From Phycisphaerales bacterium (GTDB lineage Bacteria > Planctomycetota > Phycisphaerae > Phycisphaerales > SM1A02): 45,572 nt of DNA. The position numbers and the translations under genes were made by a program. This document shows, in pieces, positions 1-45,572 of this stretch. Where the stretch lies: positions 1-45,572 of the forward strand of contig SIAR01000018.1 of assembly GCA_009691705.1 (NCBI GenBank). The letters run 5' to 3'. How positions within the stretch are numbered: the stretch's first letter is position 1; the number at the start of each line of letters is the position of its first letter. Below the pieces are notes generated by a model that worked only from the letters and a program-made list of their open reading frames with translations, was not told the DNA's origin and did no database searches.

Positions 1-116
1 TGCACACTCGCAGGCGCAATCATCGCGCATAGGGCACTCGCCACAAGAGTGCCAGCCAAGAGAGTGCTAGCCGAGAGAGTGCCACTAACGCCGCCGAAAA
101 TTCGCTCGAATGTCAT
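1..116 (-). CDS. Secreted protein of unknown function, N-terminal fragment
   Basis: Only the first 38 codons are in the window; the gene continues past the left edge. They read as a signal peptide: a short charged start (MTFERIFGG) followed by a long hydrophobic Ala/Leu/Ser/Thr stretch reaching a possible AxA-type cleavage region. The hydrophobic core is built from a five-residue repeat (GTLSA, STLLA, GTLVA) encoded by a 15-bp DNA repeat at 46-83. A TATTGT hexamer at 127-132 on the same strand, 10 nt before the ATG, fits the -10 elements seen before other genes here, so it probably has its own promoter downstream of rnr. Nothing can be said about the mature protein. Confidence 0.6.
   Translation of the reverse strand, partial: MTFERIFGGVSGTLSASTLLAGTLVASALCAMIAPASV
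46..83. repeat. 15-bp tandem repeat inside a signal peptide
   Basis: Two and a half copies of a 15-bp unit (agagtgccagccaag at 46-60, one near-identical copy at 61-75, and a half copy at 76-83). Read on the minus strand it encodes a five-residue hydrophobic repeat, so it keeps frame and hydrophobicity. Confidence 0.75.
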
Positions 117-126
117 TTTCAGAACC

Positions 127-132
127 ACAATA
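127..132 (-). promoter_or_regulatory. Putative -10 element of the secreted-protein gene
   Basis: TATTGT on the minus strand, ending 10 nt before the ATG at 116. It matches the TANNNT pattern before other genes in the window; no -35 is evident. Confidence 0.4.
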
Positions 133-151
133 AAGATGCAGCAACCCGAAC

Positions 152-174
152 CACGGGTTTCCGCGAAACCCGTG
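152..174 (-). terminator. Stem-loop between rnr and the secreted-protein gene
   Basis: A perfect 9-bp stem (CACGGGTTT at 152-160 with its complement at 166-174) and a 5-nt loop. It lies downstream of rnr and 20 nt upstream of the next gene's putative -10 element. No T-run follows, so intrinsic termination is only a guess; a 3'-end stabiliser for the rnr transcript is equally possible. Confidence 0.35.
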
Positions 175-307
175 CGTAACAGAAGCCTTGCCAAACTATG
201 CCACCGAGCTGGCCTCGCGCAACATTGAAGGGTGCGAATTGCCACATTTCGGCACACCCGCCCGCCAAGCCACGGTCAAATCAGGCCCTCTGGCTGGCTT
301 GTTTTGC

Positions 308-349
308 GGGCTTGTCTTGCCGGGCTTGTCTTGCCGGGCTTGTCGTGCC
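308..349. repeat. 14-bp tandem repeat downstream of rnr
   Basis: Three head-to-tail copies of gggcttgtcttgcc (308-321, 322-335, and 336-349 with one change), about 30 bp beyond the rnr stop codon. No convincing gene covers it. The rest of 117-379 holds only the stem-loop at 152-174. Confidence 0.7.
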
Positions 350-379
350 CGTAAACGGGTGGTGCCGCGCGTGCGCCCT

Positions 380-3855: not shown

Positions 3856-5007
3856 TCAACTTCCCGAAATCGTATCTTTGATCTTCCTCCACACGCCTTT
3901 GCCCGCGGGTCGCAGTTCTTCTTGAGGATTGGGCTCGGTCTTGGCAAACTGCTCGAGCAACTCGCGCTGCGCCGCCGTGAGTTTCTTTGGAACATCGATG
4001 CAGATTCCAATGCGCAGATCGCCGCGCACCTTGGGAGAACGCAAGTGGGGGAGTCCCGCCCCTTCGATCACCAGCACCTCGCCGTGGGGCGTGCCGCGCG
4101 GAATCTCAAGGGTGTGCGATCCTTCAAGGGTTTCAACCGAGGTCGTTCCGCCCAGCGCCGCAAGAGCAAAGCTGATGTCGCGGGTTGAAATCAAATCATC
4201 TTCGACGCGCTCGAAAGTCTCATGCTCGGTGACTTCAACCACGACGTGCAAGTCGCCGCGGGGTCCCTTGCCGGCTGGATCGGCCTCTGGCGGAGTCGGT
4301 TCGCCCTCGCCCGAGACGCGAACGGCTTGGCCATGTGAAATACCAGCGGGAATCTTCACACTGAGGTTGCGGCGCTTTGGAACGCGACCGGCGCCACGGC
4401 ACTCTGGGCAGAAGTCGGTGATGACTTGTCCGCGTCCTCGGCAGTTGGGGCAGGTCGTGACCATGCGAAACATTCCGCCAAGACCTGCTTGCGCGACTTG
4501 TCCGCTTCCAGCGCAGGTTGGGCATTTGATTGGCTTCGTTCCAGCCTTCGCGCCAGAACCATCGCAGGTCGTGCAGACATCGCGCCGAGTGAACGCGACT
4601 TCAACCTCTTTGCCGTTCAGCACATCCTTCAGCGAAATCTCGACGCTCGTTTCGAGGTCATACCCGCGCACAGGACCGCGCCGACCACCGCGCGATTGAC
4701 CGCTTCCTCCAAAGATGTCGTTGAAGATCGAGAAGATGTCATCAGGACGCATGCGCGAGAAATCGTGGCCCGGAGTCTGACGCAGTCCAGCGTGTCCATA
4801 CTTGTCGTAGAGCCCTTTGCGCTCGGGATCGGAGAGCACTTCGTAAGCCTCAGCGCAGACCTTGAATTCAGTCTCAGCCTTCGCATCGCCTGGATTGCGA
4901 TCGGGGTGCCACTTCATCGCCATGCGGCGGTAGGCGCGTTTGATCTCGTCGCCGTTGGCGGCGCGTTCAACCGAAAGGACTTCGTAGTAGTCGCGTTCGA
5001 TGCTCAT
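3856..5007 (-). CDS. dnaJ: Chaperone protein DnaJ
   Basis: Type I Hsp40 that delivers unfolded proteins to DnaK and stimulates its ATPase. The 383 residues contain a J domain (about 5-70) with HPD at 34-36, a short Gly/Phe-rich linker (DIFSIFNDIFGGSG), four CxxCxGxG zinc motifs (CTTCDGSG, CPTCAGSG, CPNCRGRG, CPECRGAG), and the two C-terminal substrate domains. It starts only 23 nt downstream of a strong terminator that ends the groE unit, and that gap shows neither a TANNNT promoter element nor a clear Shine-Dalgarno site. Expression therefore probably depends on read-through from groE. It is followed closely by grpE. Confidence 0.96.
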   Translation of the reverse strand: MSIERDYYEVLSVERAANGDEIKRAYRRMAMKWHPDRNPGDAKAETEFKVCAEAYEVLSDPERKGLYDKYGHAGLRQTPGHDFSRMRPDDIFSIFNDIFGGSGQSRGGRRGPVRGYDLETSVEISLKDVLNGKEVEVAFTRRDVCTTCDGSGAKAGTKPIKCPTCAGSGQVAQAGLGGMFRMVTTCPNCRGRGQVITDFCPECRGAGRVPKRRNLSVKIPAGISHGQAVRVSGEGEPTPPEADPAGKGPRGDLHVVVEVTEHETFERVEDDLISTRDISFALAALGGTTSVETLEGSHTLEIPRGTPHGEVLVIEGAGLPHLRSPKVRGDLRIGICIDVPKKLTAAQRELLEQFAKTEPNPQEELRPAGKGVWRKIKDTISGS

Positions 5008-5030
5008 CGACAGTGTTCGCTGTGTTTCTC

Positions 5031-5079
5031 AGAAAAGAAAAACGGAGGATCGGAGTACGCGAAGTGCTCCGATCCTCCG
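5031..5079 (-). terminator. Rho-independent terminator between groEL2 and dnaJ
   Basis: A perfect 13-bp GC-rich stem (CGGAGGATCGGAG, arms 5067-5079 and 5043-5055) with an 11-nt loop. On the minus strand it is followed by TTTTTCTTTTCT (5042-5031). It sits 17 nt after the groEL2 stop and 23 nt before the dnaJ start. Confidence 0.93.
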
Positions 5080-5096
5080 CTGTTGATGCGATTGAA

Positions 5097-6710
5097 TCAG
5101 GAAATCGCCCCTTGGGTCGGTGCGGTCTCATCCTTGAGTTCAGTGATCAGAACATCTGTGGTCAACATGAGTCCGGCGATGCTCGCTGCATTCTCGATGG
5201 CAGTCTTGGCGACCAGTGCTGGATCGATGATGCCAGCCTTGATGAGATCTTCGTATTCGCCAGTCGATGCATTGAAGCCGAACGATCCCTTGCCTTCGAG
5301 AACTTTTTCGACAACAACGTCGCCGTCGATGCCGAAATTGGTCGCGATTTGCCAGGTTGGTTTGCGAAGCGCTTCGGCAACGATGTCGTAGCCAAACACT
5401 TCATCGCCCTCAGCGTCTTTGCGGGCCGACTTGATGGCGGTGATCGCGCGCAAGTATGCCACGCCTCCACCAGCAACGTAGCCCTCTTTCGCAGCTGCGC
5501 GTGTGGCGTGCAGTGCGTCGTCGACGCGATCCTTCTTCTCTTTCATCGCTGTCTCAGTTGCGGCGCCGACGTGGATAATCGCCACGCCACCGGTGAGCTT
5601 CGCAAGACGCTCCATGAACTTCTCGCGGTCGTAGTCCGATGTCGACTTCTCGTGCTGTGACTTGATCTGTGCCACGCGGTCAGCGATTGCGCCCTTCTTG
5701 CCAGCGCCTTCGATGATCGTGCACTCATCCTTGGTGATGACGATGCGACGAGCCGAGCCGAGTTCAGAGAGTTCAACATCGGCGAGGTTGCGACCGATGT
5801 CTTCAGCGAAGAAGACGCCGCCAGTCAGAGTGGCGATGTCGCCGAGCATTGCCTTGCGACGGTCGCCGAATCCAGGCGCCTTCACAGCGCAAATCTGCAA
5901 CACGCCGCGCAAGCGATTGACGACGAGTGCCGCGAGGGCCTCGTTCTCAACTTCTTCGGCGATGACGAGCAGTGGCTTTGCAGTAGTCGCGACCTTGTTG
6001 AGCAGCGGCAAGAAATCAACGAGATTCGAAATCTTCTTCTCGTGGATCAGCACCATCGCGTTTTCAAGAACGCACTCAGCCTTCTTAGGATCGGTCATGA
6101 AGTATGGCGAGAGGTATCCCTTGTCGAAGCACATTCCCTCGACGTAATCGAGTGTTGTGTCGGCCGTCTTGCCTTCTTCGATTTCAACGACGCCGCTGGG
6201 TCCAACTTTGTGGATCGCCTCAGCGATGAGCTCGCCGATTTCGGTGTCGTGGTTGGCGCTCACCGTGGCGACTTTGGCGAGGTCTTCCTTGCCGCGGCAC
6301 TTGGTGCTCGCAGCCGAGATTGCCGTGCCGGCGACCGCCGCGGCAGCATTGATGCCGCGCTGGATCGCAACTGCGTTGGCTCCAGTGGCGACGAACTTGA
6401 GTCCGCCGTTGAAGATTGCCGCAGTAAGCACGGTGGCGGCAGTGGTGCCGTCGCCTGCCACATCAGCGGTCTTCTTTGCAACTTGGTGCACCAACTTGGC
6501 GCCCATGTTCTGGAATGGATCGGGGAGTTCGACTTCTTTCGCGACGCTCACGCCGTCCTTTGTAACGGATGGGCTGCCGAAAGACTTCTGAACAATGACG
6601 TTGCGTCCCGCTGGACCCATCGTGACGGCGACCGCTTGAGCGATCTGATCGACGCCACGCTTCAATTCAGCGTGGGCGGCGGTTGAGAATTTCATTTGCT
6701 TCGTAGACAT
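5097..6710 (-). CDS. groEL: Chaperonin GroEL, second copy without Gly-Met tail
   Basis: Hsp60 chaperonin subunit; rings of 14 subunits fold client proteins with GroES. The 537 residues keep the ATP-site elements: [11 protein letters not shown] with D52, AGDGTTAATVL with D87, and [11 protein letters not shown] in the position of the catalytic Asp398. Its C-terminus ends in a plain polar stretch (TAPTQGAIS) and lacks the Gly-Gly-Met tail carried by the other copy at 7124-8812. It also has a cysteine-containing apical region (TKCRGKE) that differs from the other copy. It follows groES by 35 nt and has a GGAG site 8 nt before the ATG. A specialised client set is inference. Confidence 0.95.
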   Translation of the reverse strand: MSTKQMKFSTAAHAELKRGVDQIAQAVAVTMGPAGRNVIVQKSFGSPSVTKDGVSVAKEVELPDPFQNMGAKLVHQVAKKTADVAGDGTTAATVLTAAIFNGGLKFVATGANAVAIQRGINAAAAVAGTAISAASTKCRGKEDLAKVATVSANHDTEIGELIAEAIHKVGPSGVVEIEEGKTADTTLDYVEGMCFDKGYLSPYFMTDPKKAECVLENAMVLIHEKKISNLVDFLPLLNKVATTAKPLLVIAEEVENEALAALVVNRLRGVLQICAVKAPGFGDRRKAMLGDIATLTGGVFFAEDIGRNLADVELSELGSARRIVITKDECTIIEGAGKKGAIADRVAQIKSQHEKSTSDYDREKFMERLAKLTGGVAIIHVGAATETAMKEKKDRVDDALHATRAAAKEGYVAGGGVAYLRAITAIKSARKDAEGDEVFGYDIVAEALRKPTWQIATNFGIDGDVVVEKVLEGKGSFGFNASTGEYEDLIKAGIIDPALVAKTAIENAASIAGLMLTTDVLITELKDETAPTQGAIS

Positions 6711-6745
6711 AAGTGCACTCCTATCGTGTTGTGCGGTGAAAAAAA

Positions 6746-7039
6746 TCAGCCATCGATCACGCCGAGCAATTCGCTCTCGCGAATGATGAGGTGTGCCACA
6801 TTCTTGATTTCAATCTCGGTGCCCGAGTACTTGCCATAGACGACGGTGTCGCCCTTCTTGACCGTTGGAACGAGGCGCGATCCGTTGTCAAGCAATTTGC
6901 CTGGTCCAACAGAAATGACCTTGCCCTGCATTGGCTTCTCTTTGGCAGATTCTGGCAAGAAAATGCCAGAGGTGGTCTTGGTCTCTGCGTCGAGTGGTTT
7001 GACGACGATGCGGTCTTCGAGTGGTCGAACAGTGCTCAT
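6746..7039 (-). CDS. groES: Co-chaperonin GroES
   Basis: Hsp10 lid that caps the GroEL chamber. The 97 residues show the family start (VRPLEDRIVVKPL), a mobile loop (TKTTSGIFLPESAKEKP) that contacts GroEL, and the conserved VKKGDTVVYGKYSGTEIEI and LIIRESELLGVI segments. A GGAG site lies about 8 nt before the ATG. It sits between two groEL genes, 84 nt after the first and 35 nt before the second, an order (groEL-groES-groEL) that differs from the common groES-groEL arrangement. Confidence 0.97.
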   Translation of the reverse strand: MSTVRPLEDRIVVKPLDAETKTTSGIFLPESAKEKPMQGKVISVGPGKLLDNGSRLVPTVKKGDTVVYGKYSGTEIEIKNVAHLIIRESELLGVIDG

Positions 7040-7077
7040 GTGTGAATCTCCGTGTGTAAAAAAAGTTGAATGTGAAA

Positions 7078-7102
7078 ATTGAATTGAATTGAATTGAATT
7101 GA
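7078..7102. repeat. ATTGA pentamer repeat between groEL1 and groES
   Basis: Five perfect tandem copies of ATTGA in the 84-nt untranslated gap between the two genes. On the transcribed strand this gives a U/C/A-rich unstructured stretch next to a T-run (7057-7064 in reverse complement). Confidence 0.85.
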
Positions 7103-7123
7103 AAAGAGTTGCTGCGCGCTGGA

Positions 7124-8812
<1,689 letters not shown>

Positions 8813-9904: not shown

Positions 9905-9910
9905 AGCGTA
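9905..9910 (-). promoter_or_regulatory. Putative -10 element, zinc-ribbon membrane gene
   Basis: TACGCT on the minus strand, 6 nt from the ATG at 9898. No Shine-Dalgarno sequence fits in the gap. Confidence 0.55.
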
Positions 9911-10038: not shown

Positions 10039-10044
10039 TAGCAT
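10039..10044 (+). promoter_or_regulatory. Putative -10 element, Lon-N-domain gene
   Basis: TAGCAT, 8 nt before the ATG at 10053. It argues for that ATG over the in-frame ATG at 9999. Confidence 0.45.
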
Positions 10045-10052: not shown

Positions 10053-10763
10053 ATGGCCGAGATGGTGTCAATCAATTTCGCCGAGCCTGTTGCGATCATC
10101 CCGCTTCCCGGAGTCGTGCTCTTGCCGCACACGGCGCTTCCGCTGCACATTTTTGAGCAGCGCTATCGACAAATGATTCGCCATGCCCTTGGTGGATCGC
10201 CTTCCGCGTCGATTCAACCCATCGCCATCGCCTCGATCATGCCCGACGCGAAGTCGACGCTGCGCGATCCGCCGCTGCGCGAAGTCGTCTGTGTTGCACA
10301 CATCGTGCAGCACCAAACCCACACCGACGGGCGATTCGACATCGTGTTGCAAGGTCTCTGCCGCGCCGCGATTGAGTCTCTGCACGAGCCCACTGCCAAA
10401 CGCCTCTATCGGCAGGCGATCCTGCGACCGATCGAGAATCCTGTCGCTGTGGTTCCTGGCCTTCGAAGGATGCGCGATGAGATGCGGGCGCTGCTCTCAG
10501 GGTTGCGTTTTCAACGGATGCAGAGCGCACGGGCGGTATTGGCGTGGATCGAGCGCAAAGAACTCTCGCATCAGGCCGCGCTCGAACTCGTCGCCTTTGC
10601 GTTGGTGAAAGATGATGAGTTGCGATATCGCATTCTTTCAGAGAGCGACGCATACGAACGGGCGAAACTCATCTGGACCGACTTGCACCGAACCGATCGA
10701 TTCATCGCCAAAGCCGAACTGCAGTTGGGCAAAGATGCGCCGCGCGGCGTGAGTTGGAATTAG
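10053..10763 (+). CDS. Lon N-terminal (substrate-binding) domain protein
   Basis: A stand-alone relative of the N-terminal domain of Lon protease. The conserved start of that domain is clear (IIPLPGVVLLPHTALPLHIFE, spanning about 12-32), followed by RYRQMIRHAL and the VAHIVQHQTHTDGRFDIVLQG segment, then a helical second half. There is no AAA+ or Ser-Lys protease domain, so it is not Lon itself. Such proteins are often near housekeeping genes and their role is unproven. Start: 10053 is chosen because of the TAGCAT element 8 nt upstream; an upstream in-frame ATG at 9999 would add 18 residues that look non-conserved. 236 residues. Confidence 0.85.
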   Translation: MAEMVSINFAEPVAIIPLPGVVLLPHTALPLHIFEQRYRQMIRHALGGSPSASIQPIAIASIMPDAKSTLRDPPLREVVCVAHIVQHQTHTDGRFDIVLQGLCRAAIESLHEPTAKRLYRQAILRPIENPVAVVPGLRRMRDEMRALLSGLRFQRMQSARAVLAWIERKELSHQAALELVAFALVKDDELRYRILSESDAYERAKLIWTDLHRTDRFIAKAELQLGKDAPRGVSWN

Positions 10764-10858: not shown

Positions 10859-10864
10859 TATCCT
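10859..10864 (+). promoter_or_regulatory. Putative -10 element, HAD-lemA-ruvB operon
   Basis: TATCCT, 6 nt before the ATG at 10871; a TTGTTT at 10835-10840 with an 18-bp spacer could be the -35. Confidence 0.6.
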
Positions 10865-16485: not shown

Positions 16486-16491
16486 ATGGTA
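16486..16491 (-). promoter_or_regulatory. Putative -10 element, lptD-like gene
   Basis: TACCAT on the minus strand, 9 nt from the ATG at 16476, in the 25-nt gap after the prenyltransferase gene. It supports the shorter start. Confidence 0.5.
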
Positions 16492-16501: not shown

Positions 16502-17476
16502 TCAGCCTCGGTATGCGATGGGTTGTGCGACTGATCCACCGAGTTCTTTCAGCAGAGTCATCGCACCGAATCCGACTCCTGCCACGATGAGCGCGATCAC
16601 TGCCCACCAGTTTTCTCCCCACGAGAAGAGCCATGCGGCGGCGTAGATCGACTGCCAGAGTGCGCCATATCGCGCAATCTTCTCGGCGGCAATCGCCGCA
16701 TTCGTTGCGCGCTTGACCTTGCGGTGCACAACCGCGATGAAGGCGATGATTGCGAGCAGTGGGATGAATGGTCCGTAGATCGGCGTCGAATCAGGCCAGA
16801 ACGATCCCGTCGATTTCGAGAGTCCAAATCCGATGATGACGGTGCTGCAGACAAGCCATCCACTAGCGAGCAACCACCTCGCGCGCATCGAGAGGGCGGG
16901 GCGCTTGGATTGCACAACGTGCATCATCGTGGCAACTGCAGTGCCATGAGTCATCGCCAGCCAAGCGGGAAGTGTGAAGGTGAACTGCTCATTTGGAATG
17001 AGCATGTTTCCGGCGTGCAACAGGCCAACGGTCAGTAGTCCGACCCCTGGGATGTACTTGGCGGTGCCGTTATAGAAGAGACTTCCTCCAGCGATCATCA
17101 GCGCGATGACGATCGCATCGGGACCGAACGAAACGACCCCCACCAGTGCCAAGAGCAGCGATGCGAGAGCAACGAGAAAGGCTTGCGCCGATCCGATGTT
17201 TCCTGCGGCAACAGGTCTGCGTGGGCTAAAAATGCGATCGTGCTTCGCGTCGAGCACGTCATTGACTGCCGCAGCGAATGAAAAAAGCCCAACAGCTGTG
17301 ACTGCAGAGCAGAGCAGCGCCTGCCAGAGTGGCATTGAGGCGACCGGCATGTAGTGGTAGTCGCTGCGACTGCGCGACAAGATGATGATGAGCCAAAGAT
17401 CGGTGATCGCGCCAAACGCCATCGAAAGTCGGGTCAATTCGACCGCTGACACGAATCTCCGTGACACACGCAGCAC
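16502..17476 (-). CDS. UbiA-family membrane prenyltransferase
   Basis: Integral membrane prenyltransferase, 324 residues, about nine hydrophobic segments. The first Asp-rich motif is intact: NDVLDAKHD (N72, D73, D76, D80), followed by SPRRPVAAG as in UbiA enzymes. The second region reads LFYNGTAKYIPGVG ... LLHAGNML rather than a clear second DxxxD motif, so it resembles the divergent UbiA-like branch (EboC-type proteins have a comparable pattern) more than 4-hydroxybenzoate transferases. Substrate unknown. The gene uses GTG with a TAGCCT element 6 nt upstream that overlaps the -10 of divergent ribH. The lptD-like gene follows after 25 nt. Confidence 0.85.
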   Translation of the reverse strand: MLRVSRRFVSAVELTRLSMAFGAITDLWLIIILSRSRSDYHYMPVASMPLWQALLCSAVTAVGLFSFAAAVNDVLDAKHDRIFSPRRPVAAGNIGSAQAFLVALASLLLALVGVVSFGPDAIVIALMIAGGSLFYNGTAKYIPGVGLLTVGLLHAGNMLIPNEQFTFTLPAWLAMTHGTAVATMMHVVQSKRPALSMRARWLLASGWLVCSTVIIGFGLSKSTGSFWPDSTPIYGPFIPLLAIIAFIAVVHRKVKRATNAAIAAEKIARYGALWQSIYAAAWLFSWGENWWAVIALIVAGVGFGAMTLLKELGGSVAQPIAYRG

Positions 17477-17482
17477 GGTCGC

Positions 17483-17488
17483 AGGCTA
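17483..17488 (-). promoter_or_regulatory. Putative -10 element, UbiA-family gene
   Basis: TAGCCT on the minus strand, 6 nt from the GTG at 17476. Its TA step (17487-17488) is also the TA of the plus-strand element for ribH. Confidence 0.55.
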
Positions 17489-17492
17489 CCAT
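17487..17492 (+). promoter_or_regulatory. Putative -10 element, ribH-nusB-ftsY operon
   Basis: TACCAT, 11 nt before the ATG at 17504. Only 27 nt separate the divergent start codons, so both promoters must lie here or inside the opposing gene. Confidence 0.55.
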
Positions 17493-17503
17493 TCCCAACC
17501 CCC

Positions 17504-18055
17504 ATGAAGCCAACTAGTTCTCATCAACCAGCCTCGCCAACAACGCACGAGGCACACGGATTGCGCGTCGGTGTTGTGACGAGTGCGTATCACGCCGAGA
17601 TCTGCGACGCGCTGACGCAGGGTGCATGCGAGGCATTCAAGGAAGCGGGGGGCGACTGTGACACGTTGATTCGCGTCGCAGCACCAGGAGCCTTTGAACT
17701 CGTCGTGATCAGCGCAGCGCTCGCAGCGCGTGCCGATGTCGATGCAGTGGTCGCCATTGGATGTGTGCTGACTGGCGAGACAAGTCACGATCGATTTTTG
17801 TGCGACGCAGTCGCGCACGGACTCGCAGAGCTTTCGATGCGCTGCGGAAAGCCCGTGGGATTCGGTGTGCTGACTTGCCTCACTCTTGAGCAAGCCCGCG
17901 CCCGCGCCGGCGGCACGAAGGGCAACAAGGGGGCAGAAGCGATGCACGCAGCAATTGCAGCCACGCGAACGATTCAAGCGATTCGCGCCGACAATCCAGC
18001 GATTCGCGCCCAAGAAGTGCTGCCCGCGGCGTGGGCAACGGGAGCCAAGCGATGA
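17504..18055 (+). CDS. ribH: 6,7-dimethyl-8-ribityllumazine synthase
   Basis: Penultimate enzyme of riboflavin synthesis: condenses 5-amino-6-ribitylamino-uracil with dihydroxybutanone phosphate. 183 residues with the family blocks VGVVTSAYHAEI, VAAPGAFELVVIS (usually PGAFE), VVAIGCVLTGETSHDRF with the catalytic His, FGVLTCLTLEQARARAG, and NKGAEAMHAAI. The usual Arg after GAVI is replaced (LTGET), a small departure. The stop overlaps the nusB start (ATGA). ribH-nusB pairing is common in bacteria and supports both calls. Confidence 0.95.
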   Translation: MKPTSSHQPASPTTHEAHGLRVGVVTSAYHAEICDALTQGACEAFKEAGGDCDTLIRVAAPGAFELVVISAALAARADVDAVVAIGCVLTGETSHDRFLCDAVAHGLAELSMRCGKPVGFGVLTCLTLEQARARAGGTKGNKGAEAMHAAIAATRTIQAIRADNPAIRAQEVLPAAWATGAKR

Positions 18056-18538: not shown

Positions 18539-19489
18539 GTGTTCTTCAAATCAGCCATCGATGCGGTTCGCAAAGGCCTCGCGCGCACAGCAGCGGCGCT
18601 CGGCGCCGGCGTGCGCAGTGTCTTGCACGGTCGCAAGATCGACGAAGCGACACTCAAAGAAGTCGAGACCCTTTTGATCGCGGCCGATGTCGGCGTGGTG
18701 GCTGCGCGTGAACTCGTAGCGTCACTGCGCACCGAGTTTCTTGCCGGACGGATGGACCGCGGCGAAGACGCGCTCGAACACCTCAAGCGAAAGATGAAGG
18801 AGCGCCTCGCGCCCGCTGCCGGAATGACGCGCGATATCGCCGTGACATCTGCGAAGCCCGCCGTCGTGCTGGTGGTCGGAGTGAACGGCGTCGGCAAGAC
18901 GACCAGCGTTGCCAAGATTGCGCACTCCATCCAGTCATCGGGTCGAACGGTGCTGCTCGCAGCCGCAGACACCTATCGCGCCGGAGCCGTCGCGCAACTC
19001 GGCGTCTGGGCAGAGCGTCTTGGGGTCGAGATCATTCGTGGCAAGGCTGGGGCAGATCCCGCCGCGGTCGCCTTCGATGCGGCCGACGCGGCAGTGGCGC
19101 GGGGAGTCGATGTGTTGCTCATCGACACAGCAGGGCGATTGCACAACGAAGAGAGCCTGATGCGACAACTCGTAAAGATTCGCGATGTAGTACGGCGGCG
19201 CATTCCAGGCGCGCCGCATGAGACGTTGCTTGTGCTCGACGCCACAAGTGGGCAGAACGCGCTCGTGCAAGCGGCAGCATTTCGCAAAGCGGTCGACATT
19301 TCTGGAATTTTTCTGGCAAAGATGGATGGCACCGCGCGCGGTGGCGTTGTCGTGGCAATTCACGATGCGCTGCAGGTTCCAGTGAAACTCATTGGCGTGG
19401 GAGAGACCCCCCAGGATGTGCAACCATTTGATGCGGATCGGTTTGTTGATGCGGTGTTTTCTCCCGGTGCGGCTACTATTTCTGCATGA
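18539..19489 (+). CDS. ftsY: Signal recognition particle receptor FtsY
   Basis: GTPase that docks ribosome-SRP complexes at the membrane for co-translational insertion. 316 residues covering the N domain (about 1-85) and the G domain: G1 VGVNGVGKTTSVAKIA (about 113-128), DTYRAGAVAQL, G3 DTAGRLHNEE, G4 region AKMDGTARGG, where the usual TK is AK, and the closing GVGETPQDVQPFDADRFVDA. The acidic A domain of E. coli FtsY is absent, as in many bacteria. GTG start, 7 nt after nusB. The last codons contain the -10 element of the next gene, which begins in an ATGA overlap. Confidence 0.93.
   Translation: MFFKSAIDAVRKGLARTAAALGAGVRSVLHGRKIDEATLKEVETLLIAADVGVVAARELVASLRTEFLAGRMDRGEDALEHLKRKMKERLAPAAGMTRDIAVTSAKPAVVLVVGVNGVGKTTSVAKIAHSIQSSGRTVLLAAADTYRAGAVAQLGVWAERLGVEIIRGKAGADPAAVAFDAADAAVARGVDVLLIDTAGRLHNEESLMRQLVKIRDVVRRRIPGAPHETLLVLDATSGQNALVQAAAFRKAVDISGIFLAKMDGTARGGVVVAIHDALQVPVKLIGVGETPQDVQPFDADRFVDAVFSPGAATISA
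19474..19479 (+). promoter_or_regulatory. Putative -10 element inside ftsY for the pseudopilin gene
   Basis: TACTAT, 6 nt before the ATG at 19486 and within the last codons of ftsY. A TTGATG at 19446-19451 is too far away to be a standard -35. Confidence 0.5.
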
Positions 19490-25784: not shown

Positions 25785-25790
25785 TATCCT
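25785..25790 (+). promoter_or_regulatory. Putative -10 element, leuS
   Basis: TATCCT, 12 nt before the ATG at 25803, in the 80-nt gap after folC. A TTGGTA at 25757-25762 is 22 bp away. Confidence 0.5.
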
Positions 25791-30490: not shown

Positions 30491-30496
30491 TATGAT
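30491..30496 (+). promoter_or_regulatory. Putative -10 element, PilZ-like gene
   Basis: TATGAT, 8 nt before the ATG at 30505. It supports that start over the in-frame ATG at 30547. Confidence 0.55.
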
Positions 30497-33753: not shown

Positions 33754-33759
33754 AGGTTA
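33754..33759 (-). promoter_or_regulatory. Putative -10 element, TerB-like cassette
   Basis: TAACCT on the minus strand, 6 nt from the ATG at 33747; only 9 nt separate this gene from the CoA-transferase stop, so it overlaps no coding start. Confidence 0.5.
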
Positions 33760-34956: not shown

Positions 34957-34962
34957 AGGATA
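34957..34962 (-). promoter_or_regulatory. Putative -10 element, CoA-transferase
   Basis: TATCCT on the minus strand, 6 nt from the ATG at 34950, with no room for a ribosome site. Confidence 0.6.
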
Positions 34963-35242: not shown

Positions 35243-35248
35243 TACTCT
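35243..35248 (+). promoter_or_regulatory. Putative -10 element, nucleotide-sugar dehydratase
   Basis: TACTCT, 6 nt before the ATG at 35255. It supports that start over in-frame codons from 35180. Confidence 0.55.
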
Positions 35249-35254: not shown

Positions 35255-37207
35255 ATGATTTCGTGGCTTGATCGTCTTCCGCGTCGGGCAAAGCAACTTC
35301 TCGTATTGACCGTTGATGCCGGCTGCTTGGCACTTTCGATGTGGCTCGCGCTCGCCGCGCGGCTCGAGTCGTGGTGGCCAGAAGTCGGCGGCCATTCACT
35401 CATCTGGGTGTGCGCGAGTGCGACGATCATCGGCATTCCATGTTGTTACACGGCGGGGCTCTATCGAGAGATCACCCGCTACGTCGGGCTTCGTTTCGCC
35501 GTGCACGTCGCCTATGCAGTGACTGCCACCGTCTTTATTCTCGCATTCGTCGTCTTGATGACCGACCGAGGGGCGGGGTTTCCACGCTCAGCGATCATCG
35601 GATTCTGGATGGCAGCGCTGCTCGCCATCGGCGGGTCGCGGGCTGTTGCGCGCTATCTGATCAGGCGAAGTGTGCAGCCATATTCGACTCGAATGATTGT
35701 GTACGGGGCGGGTGATGTCGGAGCAGGATTGGTCTCAATGCTCGCGCAAGATCAGCGTTCAACAATCGTCGCGTTCGTCGATGACGATCCATTGCGGGTC
35801 GGCACTGAAGTGCGAAGTTTGCGCGTTTACGCCGCATCGGACATCCGAAAGGTGGTGCGCGCACTGCGCGTCAGCACGATTCTGCTCGCCCTTCCAGAGT
35901 CGAGCCGCCGGCGGCGACGCGAGGTGTTCCAAGAACTCACCATGCTGGGGTTGAAGGTGATGCTTGTTCCTACCCTGAACGAGATTGCCGACGGAACCGC
36001 GCGAACAGACGCCGTGCGTGTCATGAAGATCGAAGATTTACTTGGGCGCAACCCGGTTGAGGCAAAGACGGCGCTGCTTTCGCGCAATATTGGCGGAGCG
36101 AATGTGCTCGTGACTGGTGCGGGAGGATCGATCGGCTCCGAAATAGCTCGGCAGGTTCTGCGACAGGGACCGCGCCGCTTGGTCGTTCTCGACAATTGCG
36201 AATTCAACCTATACACGATTGAGAATGAACTTCGTCGACTCGTCGGCGAGGCGAGCGGGGTGCAAATCGTTGCAGTGCTCGGGTCGGTGCTTGACCGTGT
36301 TCGTATTGAGCAGGTGATCGGCGAAAACAAGATCGAGTCGATTTATCACGCCGCGGCGTACAAGCACGTGCCAATTGTCGAGTCAAATGAGATCGAGGGA
36401 GTTGCGGTCAACGTCATCGGAACGCTTCGCACGGCGCAAGCGGCAGAGCAGCTCGGAGTTAGGACTTTCGTACTCATTTCGACGGATAAGGCTGTTCGTC
36501 CAACCAGCGTGATGGGTGCGAGCAAGCGACTTGCCGAGAAGTGCTTGCAGGCGTTGGCCGATCACGCGCAGCGAGCCTCGCAGAAGCCAAATCGAACCGA
36601 GCGAAGAACGCGATTTGCGATGGTGCGCTTCGGAAATGTGCTCGCCTCGAGCGGATCGGTTGTTCCCCTCTTCACCGAGCAGATTCGTCGTGGTGGTCCA
36701 GTGACGCTGACCCATCCTGACATCACTCGGTATTTCATGACAATTCCCGAAGCATCGTCGCTCGTCATTCAGGCGGGAGCGATGGGTAAGGGGGGAGATG
36801 TCTTCGTGCTCGACATGGGAGAGCCTGTCAAGATCATTGACCTTGCGCGAAGCATGATTCGCCTCGCCGGGTACAGCGAAAAGAGCGATGCGAATCCCCA
36901 TGGCGATATCGAGATCTTGACAACGGGTCTGCGACCGGGCGAAAAGCTCTTCGAAGAGTTACTCATCGGCGACAATTGTGGACCGACTGAGCATCCCGCA
37001 ATCATGCAGGCGCAGGAGCGGTTTATTCCGTGGCAGACGCTCGAGCCGAGCCTCACCCGCCTCGAAGCGGCCCTTGACCAACATGATGTGCCCGGTGTTC
37101 GCGCACTCTTGGAACAACTTGTGAGCGGTTACCACGAATCGCTCGCACTGGCTGGCAACCGCGGCGTTTTTTCAGACCGCCCTGAAGGATTTGCAAACGA
37201 CAGTTGA
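35255..37207 (+). CDS. Membrane-bound nucleotide-sugar 4,6-dehydratase (CapD/WbpM type)
   Basis: 650 residues, the full-length membrane form. About four transmembrane segments lie in the first 110 residues, then a nucleotide-binding CoA-binding-like domain (MIVYGAGDVGAGLVSML), then an SDR dehydratase domain with VLVTGAGGSIGSEIARQV (about 284-301), AAYKHVPIVE and ISTDKAVRPTSVMGASKRLAEK. The catalytic Tyr of ordinary SDR enzymes is Met420 and is followed by Lys424, as in WbpM-type dehydratases. They convert UDP-GlcNAc to 4-keto-6-deoxy sugars for polysaccharide or glycan synthesis at the inner membrane. No glycosyl-transferase cluster surrounds it. Starts 110 nt after tRNA-Leu. Confidence 0.92.
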   Translation: MISWLDRLPRRAKQLLVLTVDAGCLALSMWLALAARLESWWPEVGGHSLIWVCASATIIGIPCCYTAGLYREITRYVGLRFAVHVAYAVTATVFILAFVVLMTDRGAGFPRSAIIGFWMAALLAIGGSRAVARYLIRRSVQPYSTRMIVYGAGDVGAGLVSMLAQDQRSTIVAFVDDDPLRVGTEVRSLRVYAASDIRKVVRALRVSTILLALPESSRRRRREVFQELTMLGLKVMLVPTLNEIADGTARTDAVRVMKIEDLLGRNPVEAKTALLSRNIGGANVLVTGAGGSIGSEIARQVLRQGPRRLVVLDNCEFNLYTIENELRRLVGEASGVQIVAVLGSVLDRVRIEQVIGENKIESIYHAAAYKHVPIVESNEIEGVAVNVIGTLRTAQAAEQLGVRTFVLISTDKAVRPTSVMGASKRLAEKCLQALADHAQRASQKPNRTERRTRFAMVRFGNVLASSGSVVPLFTEQIRRGGPVTLTHPDITRYFMTIPEASSLVIQAGAMGKGGDVFVLDMGEPVKIIDLARSMIRLAGYSEKSDANPHGDIEILTTGLRPGEKLFEELLIGDNCGPTEHPAIMQAQERFIPWQTLEPSLTRLEAALDQHDVPGVRALLEQLVSGYHESLALAGNRGVFSDRPEGFANDS

Positions 37208-37264: not shown

Positions 37265-37270
37265 TAGGAT
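37265..37270 (+). promoter_or_regulatory. Putative -10 element, prepilin-like gene
   Basis: TAGGAT, 7 nt before the ATG at 37278. Confidence 0.5.
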
Positions 37271-37277: not shown

Positions 37278-38093
37278 ATGAAGTCTCTACCGCGACGGGC
37301 GTTCACACTTGTCGAGATACTCGTCGTGGTCGGAATCATCTCGCTGCTAGTGGGACTTCTCATTACAGCCATCGGGATGGCGCGCAAGGCCAGCAATGCC
37401 ACGGGCAGCCAAGCAAACCTGAAACAGTGGGGGGCTGCGACGATCAATTACACGTCGACCCACAAAGAACGACTTCCGTGGGAGGGGCTCGCAGCCGTCG
37501 CCGATATGCCGGTGAACCTCGCTGAGAAGACATATTGGGCGAATGCCGTGGCAGAACTTGCCGGCGAGAAACCTTACAGCGAGATTGTCTCGATGGCGGC
37601 GAGTGGACAGGATGAGATTCCAATTCCACCAACCCGATCGCTCTTCATCGACCCAGGGGCGAGTGCAAACGCCGAGGCTCCGTGGGACTTTGGATCGGGC
37701 GCCTTCTGCTTCAGTTACGTTCCCAACATGCGCCTCAACGACGCGTTGGCTGCCGAGGCGATCCCTGAGCCCAAAAAGGTGATCACGATGGCGATGATTG
37801 CCGACAGTTCAGCCACTGTGCTCATGTTTGAGTTGCGCAGCCGCGCCGATGAACTCTCGGCGAGCGATCCATACTTTGGGCAGGATCTATCGGTGAATCA
37901 GTCGGACTGGCGGGGATTTGCAAACCGACACTTCGATGGGGGTCACATCGTCTTCGCGGATGGTCACGTCTCGCACGTACTCACCGACATTGCGACGCGA
38001 TCCATGCAAGGGAGTCGAGATCCAGCGCAACCGCTCGGTGATTGGAACAAGCCGAAGTTGATTTGGAATCCAAAGGGTCAAGCGACCTATTGA
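37278..38093 (+). CDS. Prepilin-like protein with H-X9-DG motif
   Basis: 271 residues. N-terminal class III signal: MKSLPRR then AFTLVEILVVVGIISLLVG, with Glu5 of the mature protein, so it should be cut by a prepilin peptidase. The C-terminal part contains RHFDGGHIVFADGHVSHV, an exact H-X9-DG motif, the hallmark of the expanded planctomycete prepilin-like family. A DUF1559-like globular domain lies between. Role in the family is unproven; these are thought to be secreted or surface-exposed pseudopilins. Monocistronic by spacing, between the dehydratase and the HD-GYP gene. Confidence 0.87.
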   Translation: MKSLPRRAFTLVEILVVVGIISLLVGLLITAIGMARKASNATGSQANLKQWGAATINYTSTHKERLPWEGLAAVADMPVNLAEKTYWANAVAELAGEKPYSEIVSMAASGQDEIPIPPTRSLFIDPGASANAEAPWDFGSGAFCFSYVPNMRLNDALAAEAIPEPKKVITMAMIADSSATVLMFELRSRADELSASDPYFGQDLSVNQSDWRGFANRHFDGGHIVFADGHVSHVLTDIATRSMQGSRDPAQPLGDWNKPKLIWNPKGQATY

Positions 38094-40547: not shown

Positions 40548-41215
40548 TGCAACTCCAAGATCTCGATGTTCCGAAAGCTGACGCAGTCGCCATGCCCGAG
40601 AAACCCGATGTGTCCCCCTTGGCGCCGTAATCCCGGATGTGGCTTGCCATCGATCGTGCCATCATCTGCAGCTTTCGAAATGTCCGCATCGACAATCGTT
40701 TTACCGTTGAGAATGACTTGGACCTTCGACCCGCGCACGATGATCTCTTGTTGATTCCATTCGCCAACCGGTTTCAAATGCTCACGTTTCGCAGGAACAA
40801 CGCCATAGATCGAACCGTGATACTGCCACGGAGCGAGCTTCGCATACTTGGGGGATGTGTTGTCGAGCATCTGAATCTCCATTCCCTCGTAGGCAACATC
40901 TCCCGTGAGCGGCGCCCGAATTCCGATGCCGCTGTTGGCTCCAGGAGTCAGTCGAAACTCAAGCTTGAGGTGGAAGTCTGCGTATGACTCTTTGGTAAAG
41001 AGATTCGATCCAGTGGCGAGTGAGTGGATCGCGCCATCTTGCACTTTGTATCCCGCTGTATCGCCCACCCATCCCGTCAGAGTCGTTCCGTCAAACAAGG
41101 CAACGAATCTGGGTTGCGGTGTTGGGGCGGGAGCGGTCGCGGCAGGTGGCGCGATCTGCGCAGACTGCCCGAAGGAAAGCAGCAGTGTGCAGAAACAAGC
41201 GAGTGTGAGTTGCAT
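40544..41215 (-). CDS. Secreted DUF1080 (3-keto-disaccharide hydrolase-like) protein
   Basis: 223 residues with a signal peptide (MQLTLACFCTLLLSFGQSAQ). The mature part is a concanavalin-like domain of the DUF1080 family: FVALFDGTTLTGW, NLFTKESYADFHLKLEFRL, NSGIGIRAP, YEGMEIQMLDN, WNQQEIIVRGSKVQVILNGK, and GHIGFLGHGDCVSFRNIEI. The family is widespread in planctomycetes and some members act on 3-keto-sugars; substrate here unknown. It is likely periplasmic. TATGCT ends 6 nt before the ATG. Its stop overlaps the RNase H start. Confidence 0.9.
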   Translation of the reverse strand: MQLTLACFCTLLLSFGQSAQIAPPAATAPAPTPQPRFVALFDGTTLTGWVGDTAGYKVQDGAIHSLATGSNLFTKESYADFHLKLEFRLTPGANSGIGIRAPLTGDVAYEGMEIQMLDNTSPKYAKLAPWQYHGSIYGVVPAKREHLKPVGEWNQQEIIVRGSKVQVILNGKTIVDADISKAADDGTIDGKPHPGLRRQGGHIGFLGHGDCVSFRNIEILELQ

Positions 41216-41221: not shown

Positions 41222-41227
41222 AGCATA
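41222..41227 (-). promoter_or_regulatory. Putative -10 element, DUF1080-RNase H operon
   Basis: TATGCT on the minus strand, 6 nt from the ATG at 41215. Confidence 0.55.
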
Positions 41228-41282: not shown

Positions 41283-41288
41283 TACCAT
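41283..41288 (+). promoter_or_regulatory. Putative -10 element, sugar dehydrogenase
   Basis: TACCAT, 7 nt before the ATG at 41296. TTGACA at 41249-41254 is present but 28 bp away. Confidence 0.55.
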
Positions 41289-41295: not shown

Positions 41296-42501
41296 ATGAA
41301 ATTGACCGCATTGTTCGTCGCATCAAGCATCGTGGTTTCGTCAGCCGCGGCACAAGAGGTCGCACCTGCGTCAGCAGCGATTCCAAATGTGCGTATGAAA
41401 CGCGTGTATTCAAAGGCACTCTTGAAGCGGCCCGTGCAGATTGTTGCGCGCCCAGACCGCAATGACCGACTCTATGTTGTTGAACAAGCTGGACGTGTGC
41501 TCGAGATTGATTCAGCTGACACCCAGAGTGCAGGTCGGCTGGTGCTCGACCTCTCGAAGGGCCCGGTCTACGACAAGTTCAACGAGCAGGGATTGCTTTC
41601 GCTCGCATTTCATCCGAAGTTTGCCCAGAATCACTTTGCATACATCTGGTACACGGCCAAGAAGCAGGGCGAGAAGCCAGATCGCGATGTGTTGGCGCGC
41701 GTTACTGCCTCTGAAGATGGAATGTTTGTTGCAGATTCGCTGACGGTGTTGCTCGAGATTGCCGATCCAGCATGGAATCACAACGGTGGCACGGTTCTCT
41801 TTGGCCCCGACGGTTTTCTCTATCTCTCGACGGGCGATGGTGGCGCGGGAAATGATCCGTGGGGAAATGGTCAGAGTCTGAAGTCGTTGCTGGCGAAGGT
41901 ACTGCGCATCGATGTTGATCACCCAGCGGATGGCAAACCCTATGGCATCCCCGCTGACAATCCGTTTGTTGCAACTCCCGATGCGGCGAAAGAGATCTTT
42001 GCATATGGATTGCGCAACGTGTGGCGCATGTCGTTTGATCGAAAGACGGGAGAACTCTACGCCGGCGATGTTGGGCAGGATGCGTATGAAGAGATCGACA
42101 TCGTCACGAAGGGTGGAAACTTTGGATGGCGCCCACGTGAGGGGAGTCACCCGACCGAAGGTGTCGCCGACCCGAGCGAGGCGTCGGCCCGCTTTATCGA
42201 GCCGATTGCTGAATACCACCACAAGGATGGCGTCTCGGTGACGGGCGGATATGTCTACCGCGGCACGCGCTTTCCACTACTCGAAGGGGTCTACCTCTAC
42301 GCCGACTACGCCTATGGCACGATGTGGGGTATGCGTGTTGTCGATGGGAAAGTCGTGACCGCACCACGCGTCGTTGGCGGAAATCGCCGCTTTTTGCCCG
42401 CAAGTTTCGGCGAGGCGAACGATGGTGGCCTTTTCGTTTGCGGAACAGAGGGCGGAGCCGATGGCGTGGGGATGATCTACCAACTCACGGCCGAAAAATA
42501 G
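41296..42501 (+). CDS. Secreted PQQ-type glucose/sorbosone dehydrogenase
   Basis: 401 residues. Signal peptide MKLTALFVASSIVVSSAAAQ, then a six-bladed beta-propeller of the glucose/sorbosone dehydrogenase family: DRLYVVEQAGRVLEI, GLLSLAFHPKFAQN, WNHNGGTVLFGPDGFLYLS with TGDGGAGNDP, GLRNVWRMSFDRKTGELY, AGDVGQDAYEEIDIV, NFGWRPREG, and the final YADYAYGTMWGM. Members oxidise sugars in the periplasm with PQQ, but many homologues lack proven PQQ binding. The genes for PQQ synthesis are not here. Divergent from the DUF1080 gene by 80 nt. Confidence 0.9.
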   Translation: MKLTALFVASSIVVSSAAAQEVAPASAAIPNVRMKRVYSKALLKRPVQIVARPDRNDRLYVVEQAGRVLEIDSADTQSAGRLVLDLSKGPVYDKFNEQGLLSLAFHPKFAQNHFAYIWYTAKKQGEKPDRDVLARVTASEDGMFVADSLTVLLEIADPAWNHNGGTVLFGPDGFLYLSTGDGGAGNDPWGNGQSLKSLLAKVLRIDVDHPADGKPYGIPADNPFVATPDAAKEIFAYGLRNVWRMSFDRKTGELYAGDVGQDAYEEIDIVTKGGNFGWRPREGSHPTEGVADPSEASARFIEPIAEYHHKDGVSVTGGYVYRGTRFPLLEGVYLYADYAYGTMWGMRVVDGKVVTAPRVVGGNRRFLPASFGEANDGGLFVCGTEGGADGVGMIYQLTAEK

Positions 42502-44483: not shown

Positions 44484-44518
44484 TCTGCGAAGCAAAGTTG
44501 GTTTGAATTGAAGTCACA

Positions 44519-44549
44519 TGCCGCCTCCCGCGAGGCGGCATTTTCATTT
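44519..44549 (+). terminator. Rho-independent terminator after the Gly-rich gene
   Basis: A 9-bp stem, TGCCGCCTC (44519-44527) with GAGGCGGCA (44532-44540), 4-nt loop, followed by TTTTCATTT. It overlaps the last codons of the convergent cysE gene; no T-run is present on that strand. Confidence 0.88.
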
Positions 44550-45446
44550 GCCCGAGTGCGATTGTTTTTTCGACGGTGCAACCGTTAGTTCGACGCGCGC
44601 AGGTTTGACGAGCGAATGGGCGGGGACGCTCTCTTGCACCAACGCGCCAGCGGCGATTGTTGAACCTTTGCCGATGATCGTGTCACCACCAAGAATCGTC
44701 GCGTTTGCGTAGACCGTCACGTTGTCGCACAGGGTCGGATGGCGCTTCACTCCGCGGCGCAGCGATCCATCGGCATGTCGATCGAACCGCCGTGCTCCCA
44801 AGGTGACCCCTTGATAGAGAGTGCAGTTCTTGCCGATCACCGCGGTCTCTCCGATCACCACGCTGGTGCCGTGATCGACGAAGAATCCAGAGCCAATCTT
44901 GGCGCTGGGATGAATGTCGATGCCGGTCGAATCATGGGCCGATTCTGCGAGCATTCGTGGAATAAGCGGCACTCCGAGGCGGTCGAGTTCGTGGGCGATC
45001 CGGTGCACGCAGAGGGCCCGAAGTCCGGGATAGCACAACACAATCTCTGCGCGGGTGCGGGCTGCTGGGTCGCGGTTGAATGCGCTCTCGAGATCAATGA
45101 TCAGGGCACGCTGAATCTTCGGCAACGCCTTCATCAGTGCGCGCAGTTTCTTGTCGGCGTGCGACTTCGCGGTGGCGGCGTCCTTTGCTTCAGTGGAATG
45201 AGCCGCCGCAATCTCTGCTCCCAAAATCTCAAAGATGCTCTGCAGCGTGACGTCGGTTGGTTCGCCCAGCGGATCACAAATCCCAAAGATCACTCGGTGC
45301 AGATTGAGTGCCGTCCACGCGACGGCATCATGGTCAGGAAACATGCGATTCTGACGCATCTCGCGCGGCGCGCCCCGGGCGAGTGCTCGGGCAATCGACT
45401 TCACCGAGCGCGATTGTGCAATCGTTGGATGCCGCTTTGATGTCAT
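44544..45446 (-). CDS. cysE: Serine O-acetyltransferase
   Basis: Transfers acetyl from acetyl-CoA to serine, the first step of cysteine synthesis. 300 residues. The N-terminal helical domain is long (about 1-165). A left-handed beta-helix of hexapeptide repeats follows: GIDIHPSAKIGSGFFVDHG with the catalytic-region His, TSVVIGETAVIGKNCTLYQ, GVTLGARRFDR, RHPTLCDNVTVYANATILG. The end PARVELT is like the C-terminus of other SATs. It is convergent with the Gly-rich gene and shares its terminator. A TACGAT element lies 9 nt before the ATG. Confidence 0.94.
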   Translation of the reverse strand: MTSKRHPTIAQSRSVKSIARALARGAPREMRQNRMFPDHDAVAWTALNLHRVIFGICDPLGEPTDVTLQSIFEILGAEIAAAHSTEAKDAATAKSHADKKLRALMKALPKIQRALIIDLESAFNRDPAARTRAEIVLCYPGLRALCVHRIAHELDRLGVPLIPRMLAESAHDSTGIDIHPSAKIGSGFFVDHGTSVVIGETAVIGKNCTLYQGVTLGARRFDRHADGSLRRGVKRHPTLCDNVTVYANATILGGDTIIGKGSTIAAGALVQESVPAHSLVKPARVELTVAPSKKQSHSGK

Positions 45447-45455
45447 TGAATGGCG

Positions 45456-45461
45456 ATCGTA
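45456..45461 (-). promoter_or_regulatory. Putative -10 element, cysE
   Basis: TACGAT on the minus strand, 9 nt from the ATG at 45446. Confidence 0.5.
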
Positions 45462-45497
45462 GCTTGGCTTTGACCAGCGCCCACCGCAGTGCGCCGC

Positions 45498-45572
45498 CTA
45501 CTTCGCGCCATCGCCCGAGGCGGGACGATCGTCGTCACTGCTCGCACTGCTCGCACTGCTCGCACTGCTCGC
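45498..45572 (-). CDS. C-terminal fragment of an unknown gene
   Basis: The last 24 codons of a minus-strand frame that enters from the right edge: four Ala-Ser-Ser repeats then DDDRPASGDGAK and a TAG stop. The repeat DNA is open in several frames, so the gene is uncertain; the (Arg-Ala-Val) frame also stays open, to 45443. The acidic, disordered tail looks more natural for a protein end, and this frame leaves a 51-nt gap holding the cysE promoter. Confidence 0.4.
   Translation of the reverse strand, partial: ASSASSASSASSDDDRPASGDGAK
45536..45572. repeat. 9-bp tandem repeat at the right edge
   Basis: Four perfect copies of cactgctcg, running off the window end, so the true copy number is unknown. 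Confidence 0.85.

What the first reader, a model, noticed from the sequence alone, without database searches (positions are those of the whole stretch)
1..45572. Window-wide leaderless-promoter signature: TANNNT 6-12 nt before the start codon
Seen: about twenty genes, nearly all at the head of a presumed transcription unit, have TANNNT (once TANNNC, before the LOG gene, and TAATAAT before the FHA gene) ending 6-12 nt before the start codon. Examples: 17487, 19474, 25785, 30491, 35243, 37265 and 41283 (plus); 9905, 17483, 33754, 34957 and 41222 (minus). Several read GGCTANNNT or GCTANNNT. When the gap is 6-7 nt, transcription would begin at the start codon itself. In contrast, inner operon genes (groES, groEL2, grpE, lemA, the Bax-inhibitor gene, the 92-aa gene, the RNase H gene) have GGAG-type sites. 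A chance hit of TANNNT in such a short window should be rare, a few per cent per gene. Inference: leaderless initiation is a main mode in this organism. No consistent -35 is visible.
Basis: partly seen in the sequence, partly recalled or inferred. Interest (0 to 1): 0.75.

Follow-up and report, generated by a model that had tools for sequence, protein, structure and literature searches.

The report
Genes starting without a leader RNA
In this bacterium, a relative of Phycisphaerales (planctomycetes), many genes carry what looks like their promoter right against the start codon, so the messenger RNA probably begins at, or within a few bases of, the gene itself; this is known from other bacterial groups.

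Summary
All 12 listed hexamers are present; 16 of 38 window genes, including 8 of 8 heads of divergent pairs, have TANNNT 6-12 nt before the start codon. In 710,656 bp (36%) of the same genome, with starts called blind to the motif, 69 of 194 divergent heads have it, against 9 of 194 at gap 13-19 and 4 of 194 at gap 0-5. The commonest gap is 6, which would put +1 on the start codon. The sign is rarer in close-packed downstream genes (20 of 191), rarely meets a Shine-Dalgarno core, scarcely occurs with TTG starts, and is kept in orthologues: a UbiA-like gene has gap exactly 6 in 12 of 24 genera. In longer gaps the extra bases are purine-poor (leuS: 4 of 145), which could move +1 to the A of ATG. 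Leaderless or near-leaderless transcription from -10-only promoters is the best reading: a known kind (Actinobacteria, Deinococcus-Thermus). My searches showed no report for this clade. Outside the family it is clear in one of eight sampled genomes. No 5' ends were mapped.

The parts
9905..9910 (-). TACGCT, -10 element, gap 6 to ATG at 9898
10039..10044 (+). TAGCAT, -10 element, gap 8 to ATG at 10053
10859..10864 (+). TATCCT, -10 element, gap 6 to ATG at 10871
16486..16491 (-). TACCAT, -10-like, gap 9 to ATG at 16476 (an upstream GTG at 16539 is possible, so uncertain)
17483..17488 (-). TAGCCT, -10 element, gap 6 to GTG at 17476 (UbiA-like gene); exact gap 6 in 12 of 24 loci with the divergent pair, the window's own included
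17487..17492 (+). TACCAT, -10 element, gap 11 to ATG at 17504 (ribH); shares its TA with the element on the other strand
19474..19479 (+). TACTAT, -10 element, gap 6 to ATG at 19486
25785..25790 (+). TATCCT, -10 element, gap 12 to ATG at 25803 (leuS); kept in relatives mostly at gap 9, 10 or 12
30491..30496 (+). TATGAT, -10 element, gap 8 to ATG at 30505
33754..33759 (-). TAACCT, -10 element, gap 6 to ATG at 33747
34957..34962 (-). TATCCT, -10 element, gap 6 to ATG at 34950 (CoA-transferase III)
35243..35248 (+). TACTCT, -10 element, gap 6 to ATG at 35255 (Polysacc_synt_2 gene); kept in 12 of 19 loci, the window's own included
37265..37270 (+). TAGGAT, -10 element, gap 7 to ATG at 37278
41222..41227 (-). 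TATGCT, -10 element, gap 6 to ATG at 41215
41283..41288 (+). TACCAT, -10 element, gap 7 to ATG at 41296
45456..45461 (-). TACGAT, -10 element, gap 9 to ATG at 45446

Best explanation
TANNNT (most often TAGACT, TACCCT, TAGGAT) is the -10 element of promoters that work without a -35 consensus, set so close to the gene that RNA polymerase starts on the first base of the start codon (gap 6) or a few bases before it (gap 7-12). The mRNA therefore has no leader, or one too short for a Shine-Dalgarno site, and ribosomes must start on the 5'-terminal AUG or GUG, or very near the 5' end. In the longer-gap promoters the bases between the usual +1 and the ATG tend to lack purines, so initiation may slide to the A of ATG. 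Genes further down operons use the sign less and Shine-Dalgarno sites more. Shown by computation: position, gene class, start-codon use, near-exclusion of SD, conservation. Inferred: that the hexamer is a promoter, the exact +1, and leaderless translation.
For: Sharp lower edge at gap 6: own genome, divergent heads, gap 5: 0, gap 6: 29; gaps 6-12 69 of 194, gap 0-5 4, gap 13-19 9 of 194. Repeat in 20 other contigs: 29 of 84 against 3 (gap 0-5) and 6 (gap 13-19). Gene class: 69 of 194 divergent heads against 20 of 191 genes under 20 nt behind a same-strand gene, Fisher p 3.5e-9. SD core in 4 of 129 TANNNT genes against 100 of 429 others, p 1.1e-8. Candidate starts with the sign at gap 6-9: ATG 117 of 679, GTG 25 of 472, TTG 3 of 366; at gap 20-23: 19, 6, 8. 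Not a stop-codon artefact at divergent heads: at gap 6 sense (TAC/TAT) and stop (TAA/TAG) forms with T at the sixth base are about equal (10 and 11 in sample 1; 5 and 4 in sample 2), and 0 and 3 lack the T. Orthologues: leuS 41 of 68 loci against 0-3 of 68 in four control windows of 7, and 4 of the 12 loci first left out, so 45 of 80; UbiA-like gene gap exactly 6 in 12 of 24, gap 6-12 in 15 of 24; Polysacc_synt_2 12 of 19, ribH 10 of 30; the last three counts include the window's own gene. Purine depletion of the bases beyond the sixth: own 83 of 243 against 113 expected, no simulation of 3000 as low; pools B+C without leuS 60 of 182 against 81 expected, P 0.0013; leuS 4 of 145 in distinct upstreams with gap above 6, against 84 of 228 in the six bases before. 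Anti-SD CCTCC intact in 5 of 10 family 16S loci, the five whose gene lies on the strand searched. RpoD above the family cut-off.
Against: No mapped 5' end. Sample 2 has as many divergent-head hits at gap 9 as at gap 6 (9 and 9 of 84), so not all are strictly leaderless if +1 lies 7 nt after the hexamer. 125 of 194 divergent heads lack the sign as called. In close-packed genes of sample 1, 7 of 8 gap-6 hits are stop forms and several lie 9 nt behind the previous gene, so there part of the hits are just the stop codon of the gene before. The -1 base is not purine-poor in gap 8-10 genes (0.45-0.62). In pool C alone the purine effect is borderline (P 0.053). ribH loci often have the hexamer 21 nt or more upstream, or lack it near the start. 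leuS keeps it in 33 of 37 loci at 64% identity or more but in only 8 of 31 below (my count). Pool A of the nearest relatives shows no clear excess in divergent heads (1 of 20 against 1 of 20 at gap 13-19; 5 against 8, or 3 against 6, of 20 with two other models); its heads are mostly copies of a few gene pairs.
Confidence: 0.88

Rival explanations
1. The hexamer is a translation signal in a longer leader (a non-SD ribosome-binding motif or S1 site), not a promoter.
For: It sits where an SD would sit and nearly excludes SD. Nakagawa et al. 2017 say that nucleotide biases upstream of non-SD genes, in Planctomycetes among others, could reflect leaderless mRNA and/or S1 (PMC5397173, passages).
Against: A translation signal should serve inner operon genes too; it is 3.4 times rarer there (20 of 191 against 69 of 194). 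The hard edge at gap 6 and the T1-A2-T6 pattern fit sigma binding as tested in Deinococcus (PMC12340547, passages). TTG starts are scarcely used.
Confidence: 0.06
2. The -10 element is real, but most transcripts carry leaders of 2-6 nt, so the mode is 'ultra-short leader' rather than leaderless. (This overlaps the wider wording of the best explanation, so the odds do not add up to 1.)
For: Gaps 8-12 hold 35 of 69 divergent-head hits (gap 8: 10, 9: 13, 10: 6, 11: 5, 12: 1); leuS keeps gaps 9, 10 and 12.
Against: Gap 6 is the mode (29 of 194) and is exact in 12 of 24 UbiA loci; the extra bases are purine-poor, so +1 may still be the A of ATG.
Confidence: 0.3
3. Artefact of start calling, composition or in-frame stop codons.
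For: The caller is home-made and some starts look wrong (it gave 6695, 17422 and 30547 where I prefer 6710, 17476 and 30505). In close-packed genes some hits are the previous gene's stop codon.
Against: Shuffles, internal ATGs, shifted windows, sense against stop forms at divergent heads, a repeat sample, and an E. coli control with 0 of 15 heads at gap 6-12; conservation in orthologues.
Confidence: 0.01

Closest known systems
TANNNT '-10 motif' next to ORFs in Deinococcus-Thermus (Zhong et al. 2025, PMC12340547; two results sections, and passages)
   Same: TANNNT about 6-7 bp before the ORF in nearly one-third of D. radiodurans genes, a second class with GGAG, no classical -35 before most; the paper shows the -10 function by RpoD binding and mutants.
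   Different: There TACACT is commonest; here TAGACT, TACCCT and TAGGAT. 'Planctomyc' does not occur in its main text; its survey figure of phyla (S7) I could not see. Here no experiment exists.
Leaderless transcripts of Actinobacteria (M. tuberculosis: Cortes et al. 2013, PMC3898074; abstract and outline seen)
   Same: For 26% of genes with a primary TSS it overlaps the start codon. The paper uses the term TANNNT (search listing); that this is its -10 I recall.
   Different: Helper factors: the only CarD-domain match in our genome lies in an ORF of 1097 aa, probably Mfd; RbpA was not searched.
TA-led genes of Zheng et al. 2011 (PMC3160421; abstract, one section and a word search)
   Same: TAnnnT about 10 bp upstream of the start read as leaderless, found in 207 of 953 bacterial genomes.
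   Different: The section lists no planctomycetes; 'Planctomycetes' and 'Rhodopirellula' do not occur in the main text.
Bidirectional promoters with a shared -10 (Warman et al. 2026, PMC12825309; passages)
   Same: The ribH/UbiA pair of the window shares the TA of two opposed -10 elements (27 bp between starts).
   Different: Sharing with both gaps at 6-12 is seen in 2 of 24 loci, the window's own included; not a general trait here.

Membership tests
TANNNT leaderless transcription (Actinobacteria / Deinococcus-Thermus type) | TANNNT enriched about 6-7 nt before starts of unit heads | tested here: met
   the spread to gap 11 is wider than 6-7
TANNNT leaderless transcription (Actinobacteria / Deinococcus-Thermus type) | No conserved -35 | tested here: met
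TANNNT leaderless transcription (Actinobacteria / Deinococcus-Thermus type) | SD sites absent from these genes but used elsewhere, anti-SD intact | tested here: met
   anti-SD read in 5 of 10 family loci; the own assembly has no 16S match
TANNNT leaderless transcription (Actinobacteria / Deinococcus-Thermus type) | 5' end of the mRNA at the start codon | not testable with these tools
   no transcript data
TANNNT leaderless transcription (Actinobacteria / Deinococcus-Thermus type) | Hexamer bound by RpoD; T1, A2, T6 needed | not testable with these tools
   RpoD is present and above cut-off (translation); by eye its 2.4, 3.0 and 4.2 regions resemble the E. coli ones that I recall; the E. coli rpoD locus was fetched but not aligned
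Bidirectional promoter with shared -10 | Opposed -10 elements overlapping, TSS 18, 10 or 23 bp apart | tested here: inconclusive
   met by sequence for ribH/UbiA in the window; over the 24 loci a shared element anywhere in the spacer is in 7, simple shuffles give 2.8 with a maximum of 7; other close divergent pairs of the genome do not share within reach of both starts

The most novel reading that the evidence does not exclude
The promoters carry a second cis signal: a purine-free run between the usual +1 and the ATG, so that RNA polymerase's preference for a purine first base moves the start to the A of ATG even when the -10 is 8-12 nt away. Leaderless status would then be kept by selection on the start-site run, and could be lost simply by gaining a purine.
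Probability: 0.35. Interest if true: 0.55.

Novelty: new member of a known kind. Interest (0 to 1): 0.42.

Why it matters
Gene finders tuned to Shine-Dalgarno sites may misplace starts in these genomes. The family offers a natural series for a single gene pair: the UbiA-like gene is often held at gap 6 while ribH moves between near-leaderless and longer-leader forms, so how leaders are gained and lost can be read directly. The patchy spread in the phylum (clear in one of eight other genomes sampled) makes gain and loss of the mode testable.

Tried and rejected
Even/odd preference of the gap (suggested by sample 1) did not repeat in sample 2. Shared-TA bidirectional promoters as a general habit: written down as a prediction, not borne out (among 28 divergent pairs with called starts 60 bp apart or less, 5 have TANNNT at gap 5-13 on both strands, and no shared element lies within reach of both starts). 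GGC as an extended -10: not supported. Stand-alone CarD as helper: the one CarD-domain match lies in an ORF of 1097 aa. A 16S gene in the own assembly: none found. Pools A, B and C all come from leuS neighbourhoods, so their genes repeat among relatives and are not independent.

Phylum: of eight other genomes sampled (87-100 kb each), only G051 (another class) shows a clear excess, 11 of 41 heads against 0-4 in control windows; G041 (same order, 3 of 41 against 0-1) and G059 (3 of 32 against 0-1) are weak; G097, G082, G058, G076 and G081 show none. Small samples and small training sets limit these.

Literature: the listings showed no title or abstract start on leaderless genes in Phycisphaerae or other Planctomycetota; two searches listed 20 of 30 and 20 of 68 papers, and most listed papers were not opened. 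Nakagawa 2017 (passages) used one planctomycete and allows leaderless and/or S1. PMC10783764 (passages) lists Phycisphaerae for its anti-SD. Lomsadze et al. 2018, as quoted in PMC9581028 (passages), predicted leaderless transcription in 21.6% of bacterial species; whether planctomycetes are among them I could not see.

For Polysacc_synt_2 I gave the 19 loci L205-L223 and left out the more partial matches L224-L234; for ribH the 30 loci held, of 39 genomes with a match. The UbiA test used the 24 of these 30 loci in which it was found; the others may end too soon. In-59 genes running off a stretch, edge genes and upstreams too short or holding N were dropped or set apart; classes 313 of 328 genes. 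An earlier count said 13 of 24 for the UbiA gap 6; the recount is 12 of 24.

Full report
What the window is. The window is contig 24 (all 45,572 bases) of a 1.99-Mb assembly, 93% complete. GC is 58.5%. The nearest leuS in the named genome collection is 88% identical; the titles of the 80 records returned are mostly planctomycete, many of them Phycisphaerales or Phycisphaerae, though they are depositors' labels and vary. Sites such as Baikal and ponds in the titles suggest fresh water.

The observation. The 12 listed hexamers are all there, and 16 of 38 window genes carry TANNNT at gap 6-12 (gap = bases between the last T and the start codon), including 8 of 8 heads of divergent pairs. Seven genes have GGAG/GAGG, none of them among the 16.

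Genome-scale test. I wrote a simple gene caller that uses dicodon statistics and start-codon type only, never upstream motifs. First sample: the window plus stretches of 20 contigs, 388,935 bp, 328 genes. Divergent heads with TANNNT at gap 6-12: 41 of 110; dinucleotide shuffles give 5.2 (maximum 13 in 100 runs). Genes less than 20 nt behind a same-strand gene: 13 of 105 (shuffles 2.1). In-frame internal ATGs: 11 of 2176. I wrote predictions down and repeated on 20 other contigs, 321,721 bp: 29 of 84 divergent heads, 7 of 81 close-packed genes; divergent heads at gap 0-5 3 of 84, at gap 13-19 6 of 84. Pooled after retraining: 69 of 194 divergent heads, none at gap 5, 29 at gap 6. The even/odd pattern of sample 1 did not repeat.

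How many genes. Allowing any in-frame start within 60 nt, 96 of 194 divergent heads have a start with the sign at gap 6-11, against 18-27 for five shifted windows. That gives about 42% (45% if TTG is left out) of divergent heads by my arithmetic; the same sum gives about 30% for genes 20-100 nt behind a same-strand gene, 16% for those over 100 nt, and 9% for those under 20 nt.

Why a promoter and why at the start codon. The lower edge at gap 6 is what RNA polymerase would give if +1 lies seven bases after the hexamer and may not lie inside the gene (a passage of PMC12825309 gives 7 bp as optimal in E. coli; its bearing here is inference). The sign nearly excludes an SD core (4 of 129 against 100 of 429), is commoner at heads, and goes with ATG and GTG but scarcely TTG starts. 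At divergent heads sense and stop forms are equally common; in close-packed genes stop forms prevail, so part of those hits are the previous gene's stop codon. No -35 pattern is seen; the hexamer favours G or C at the third and C or A at the fifth base.

Conservation. leuS: 41 of 68 loci keep TANNNT (gap 9 in 20, gap 10 in 11, gap 12 in 8), with 0-3 of 68 in four control windows, plus 4 of the other 12. It is in 33 of 37 loci at 64% identity or more and 8 of 31 below (my count). The divergent pair ribH/UbiA is found in 24 of 30 loci of the family. On the UbiA side the gap is exactly 6 in 12 of 24 and 6-12 in 15 of 24, the window's own included; on the ribH side it is 8-11 in 7 of 24, while in several others a TACCAT or TACGAT lies 21 nt or more upstream. 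The Polysacc_synt_2 gene keeps it in 12 of 19 loci, the window's own included.

The run before ATG. In promoters with gap 7-12 the bases beyond the sixth are purine-poor: 83 of 243 against 113 expected in the own genome, 60 of 182 against 81 in pools B+C without leuS, with pool C alone borderline. In leuS loci it is extreme, 4 of 145 against 84 of 228 in the six bases before; these sequences are related. In leuS loci without the hexamer the last four bases hold 40 purines of 108. The -1 base itself is not purine-poor in the own genome. I take this as a moderate sign that initiation is moved to the A of ATG.

Breadth. Pools of leuS neighbourhoods without leuS: B 23 of 56, C 20 of 62 divergent heads; these repeat gene families. 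Pool A, the nearest relatives, shows no clear excess but holds copies of a few gene pairs. Other genomes of the phylum: clear in G051 only, weak in G041 and G059, absent in five, absent in 50 kb of E. coli (0 of 15 heads). The anti-SD is intact in the family loci read and RpoD is present, so nothing in the basic machinery examined explains the habit.

Verdict. The mode is a known kind; its presence in this family, its frequent exact gap at one gene and drift at its neighbour, and the purine-poor run are what this work adds.

Noticed in passing
window 17476-17504: Divergent UbiA-like gene and ribH have only 27 bp between their start codons, and two opposed -10 elements share one TA (AGGCTACCAT).
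   Followed up: yes
window 3856-8812: Two groEL genes flank groES in one run, followed by dnaJ; the three chaperonin genes have GGAG sites, dnaJ (5007) has neither sign.
   Followed up: no
G003, G005, G006, G012, G028, G029, G039: 16S rRNA matches in these family genomes break at model position about 873-902, some at contig ends; in G005 the two pieces are adjacent, so it may only be how the search splits. Not checked for an insert.
   Followed up: no
L004, L005, L006, L007 between two divergent genes behind leuS: A 35-bp divergent spacer holds TAGCGT at gap 7 before the plus gene in all four, with further TANNNT-like elements.
   Followed up: partly
G000:C8:20935-21117: The only CarD-domain match of the genome lies in an ORF of 1097 aa, probably Mfd; no stand-alone CarD was found.
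   Followed up: no
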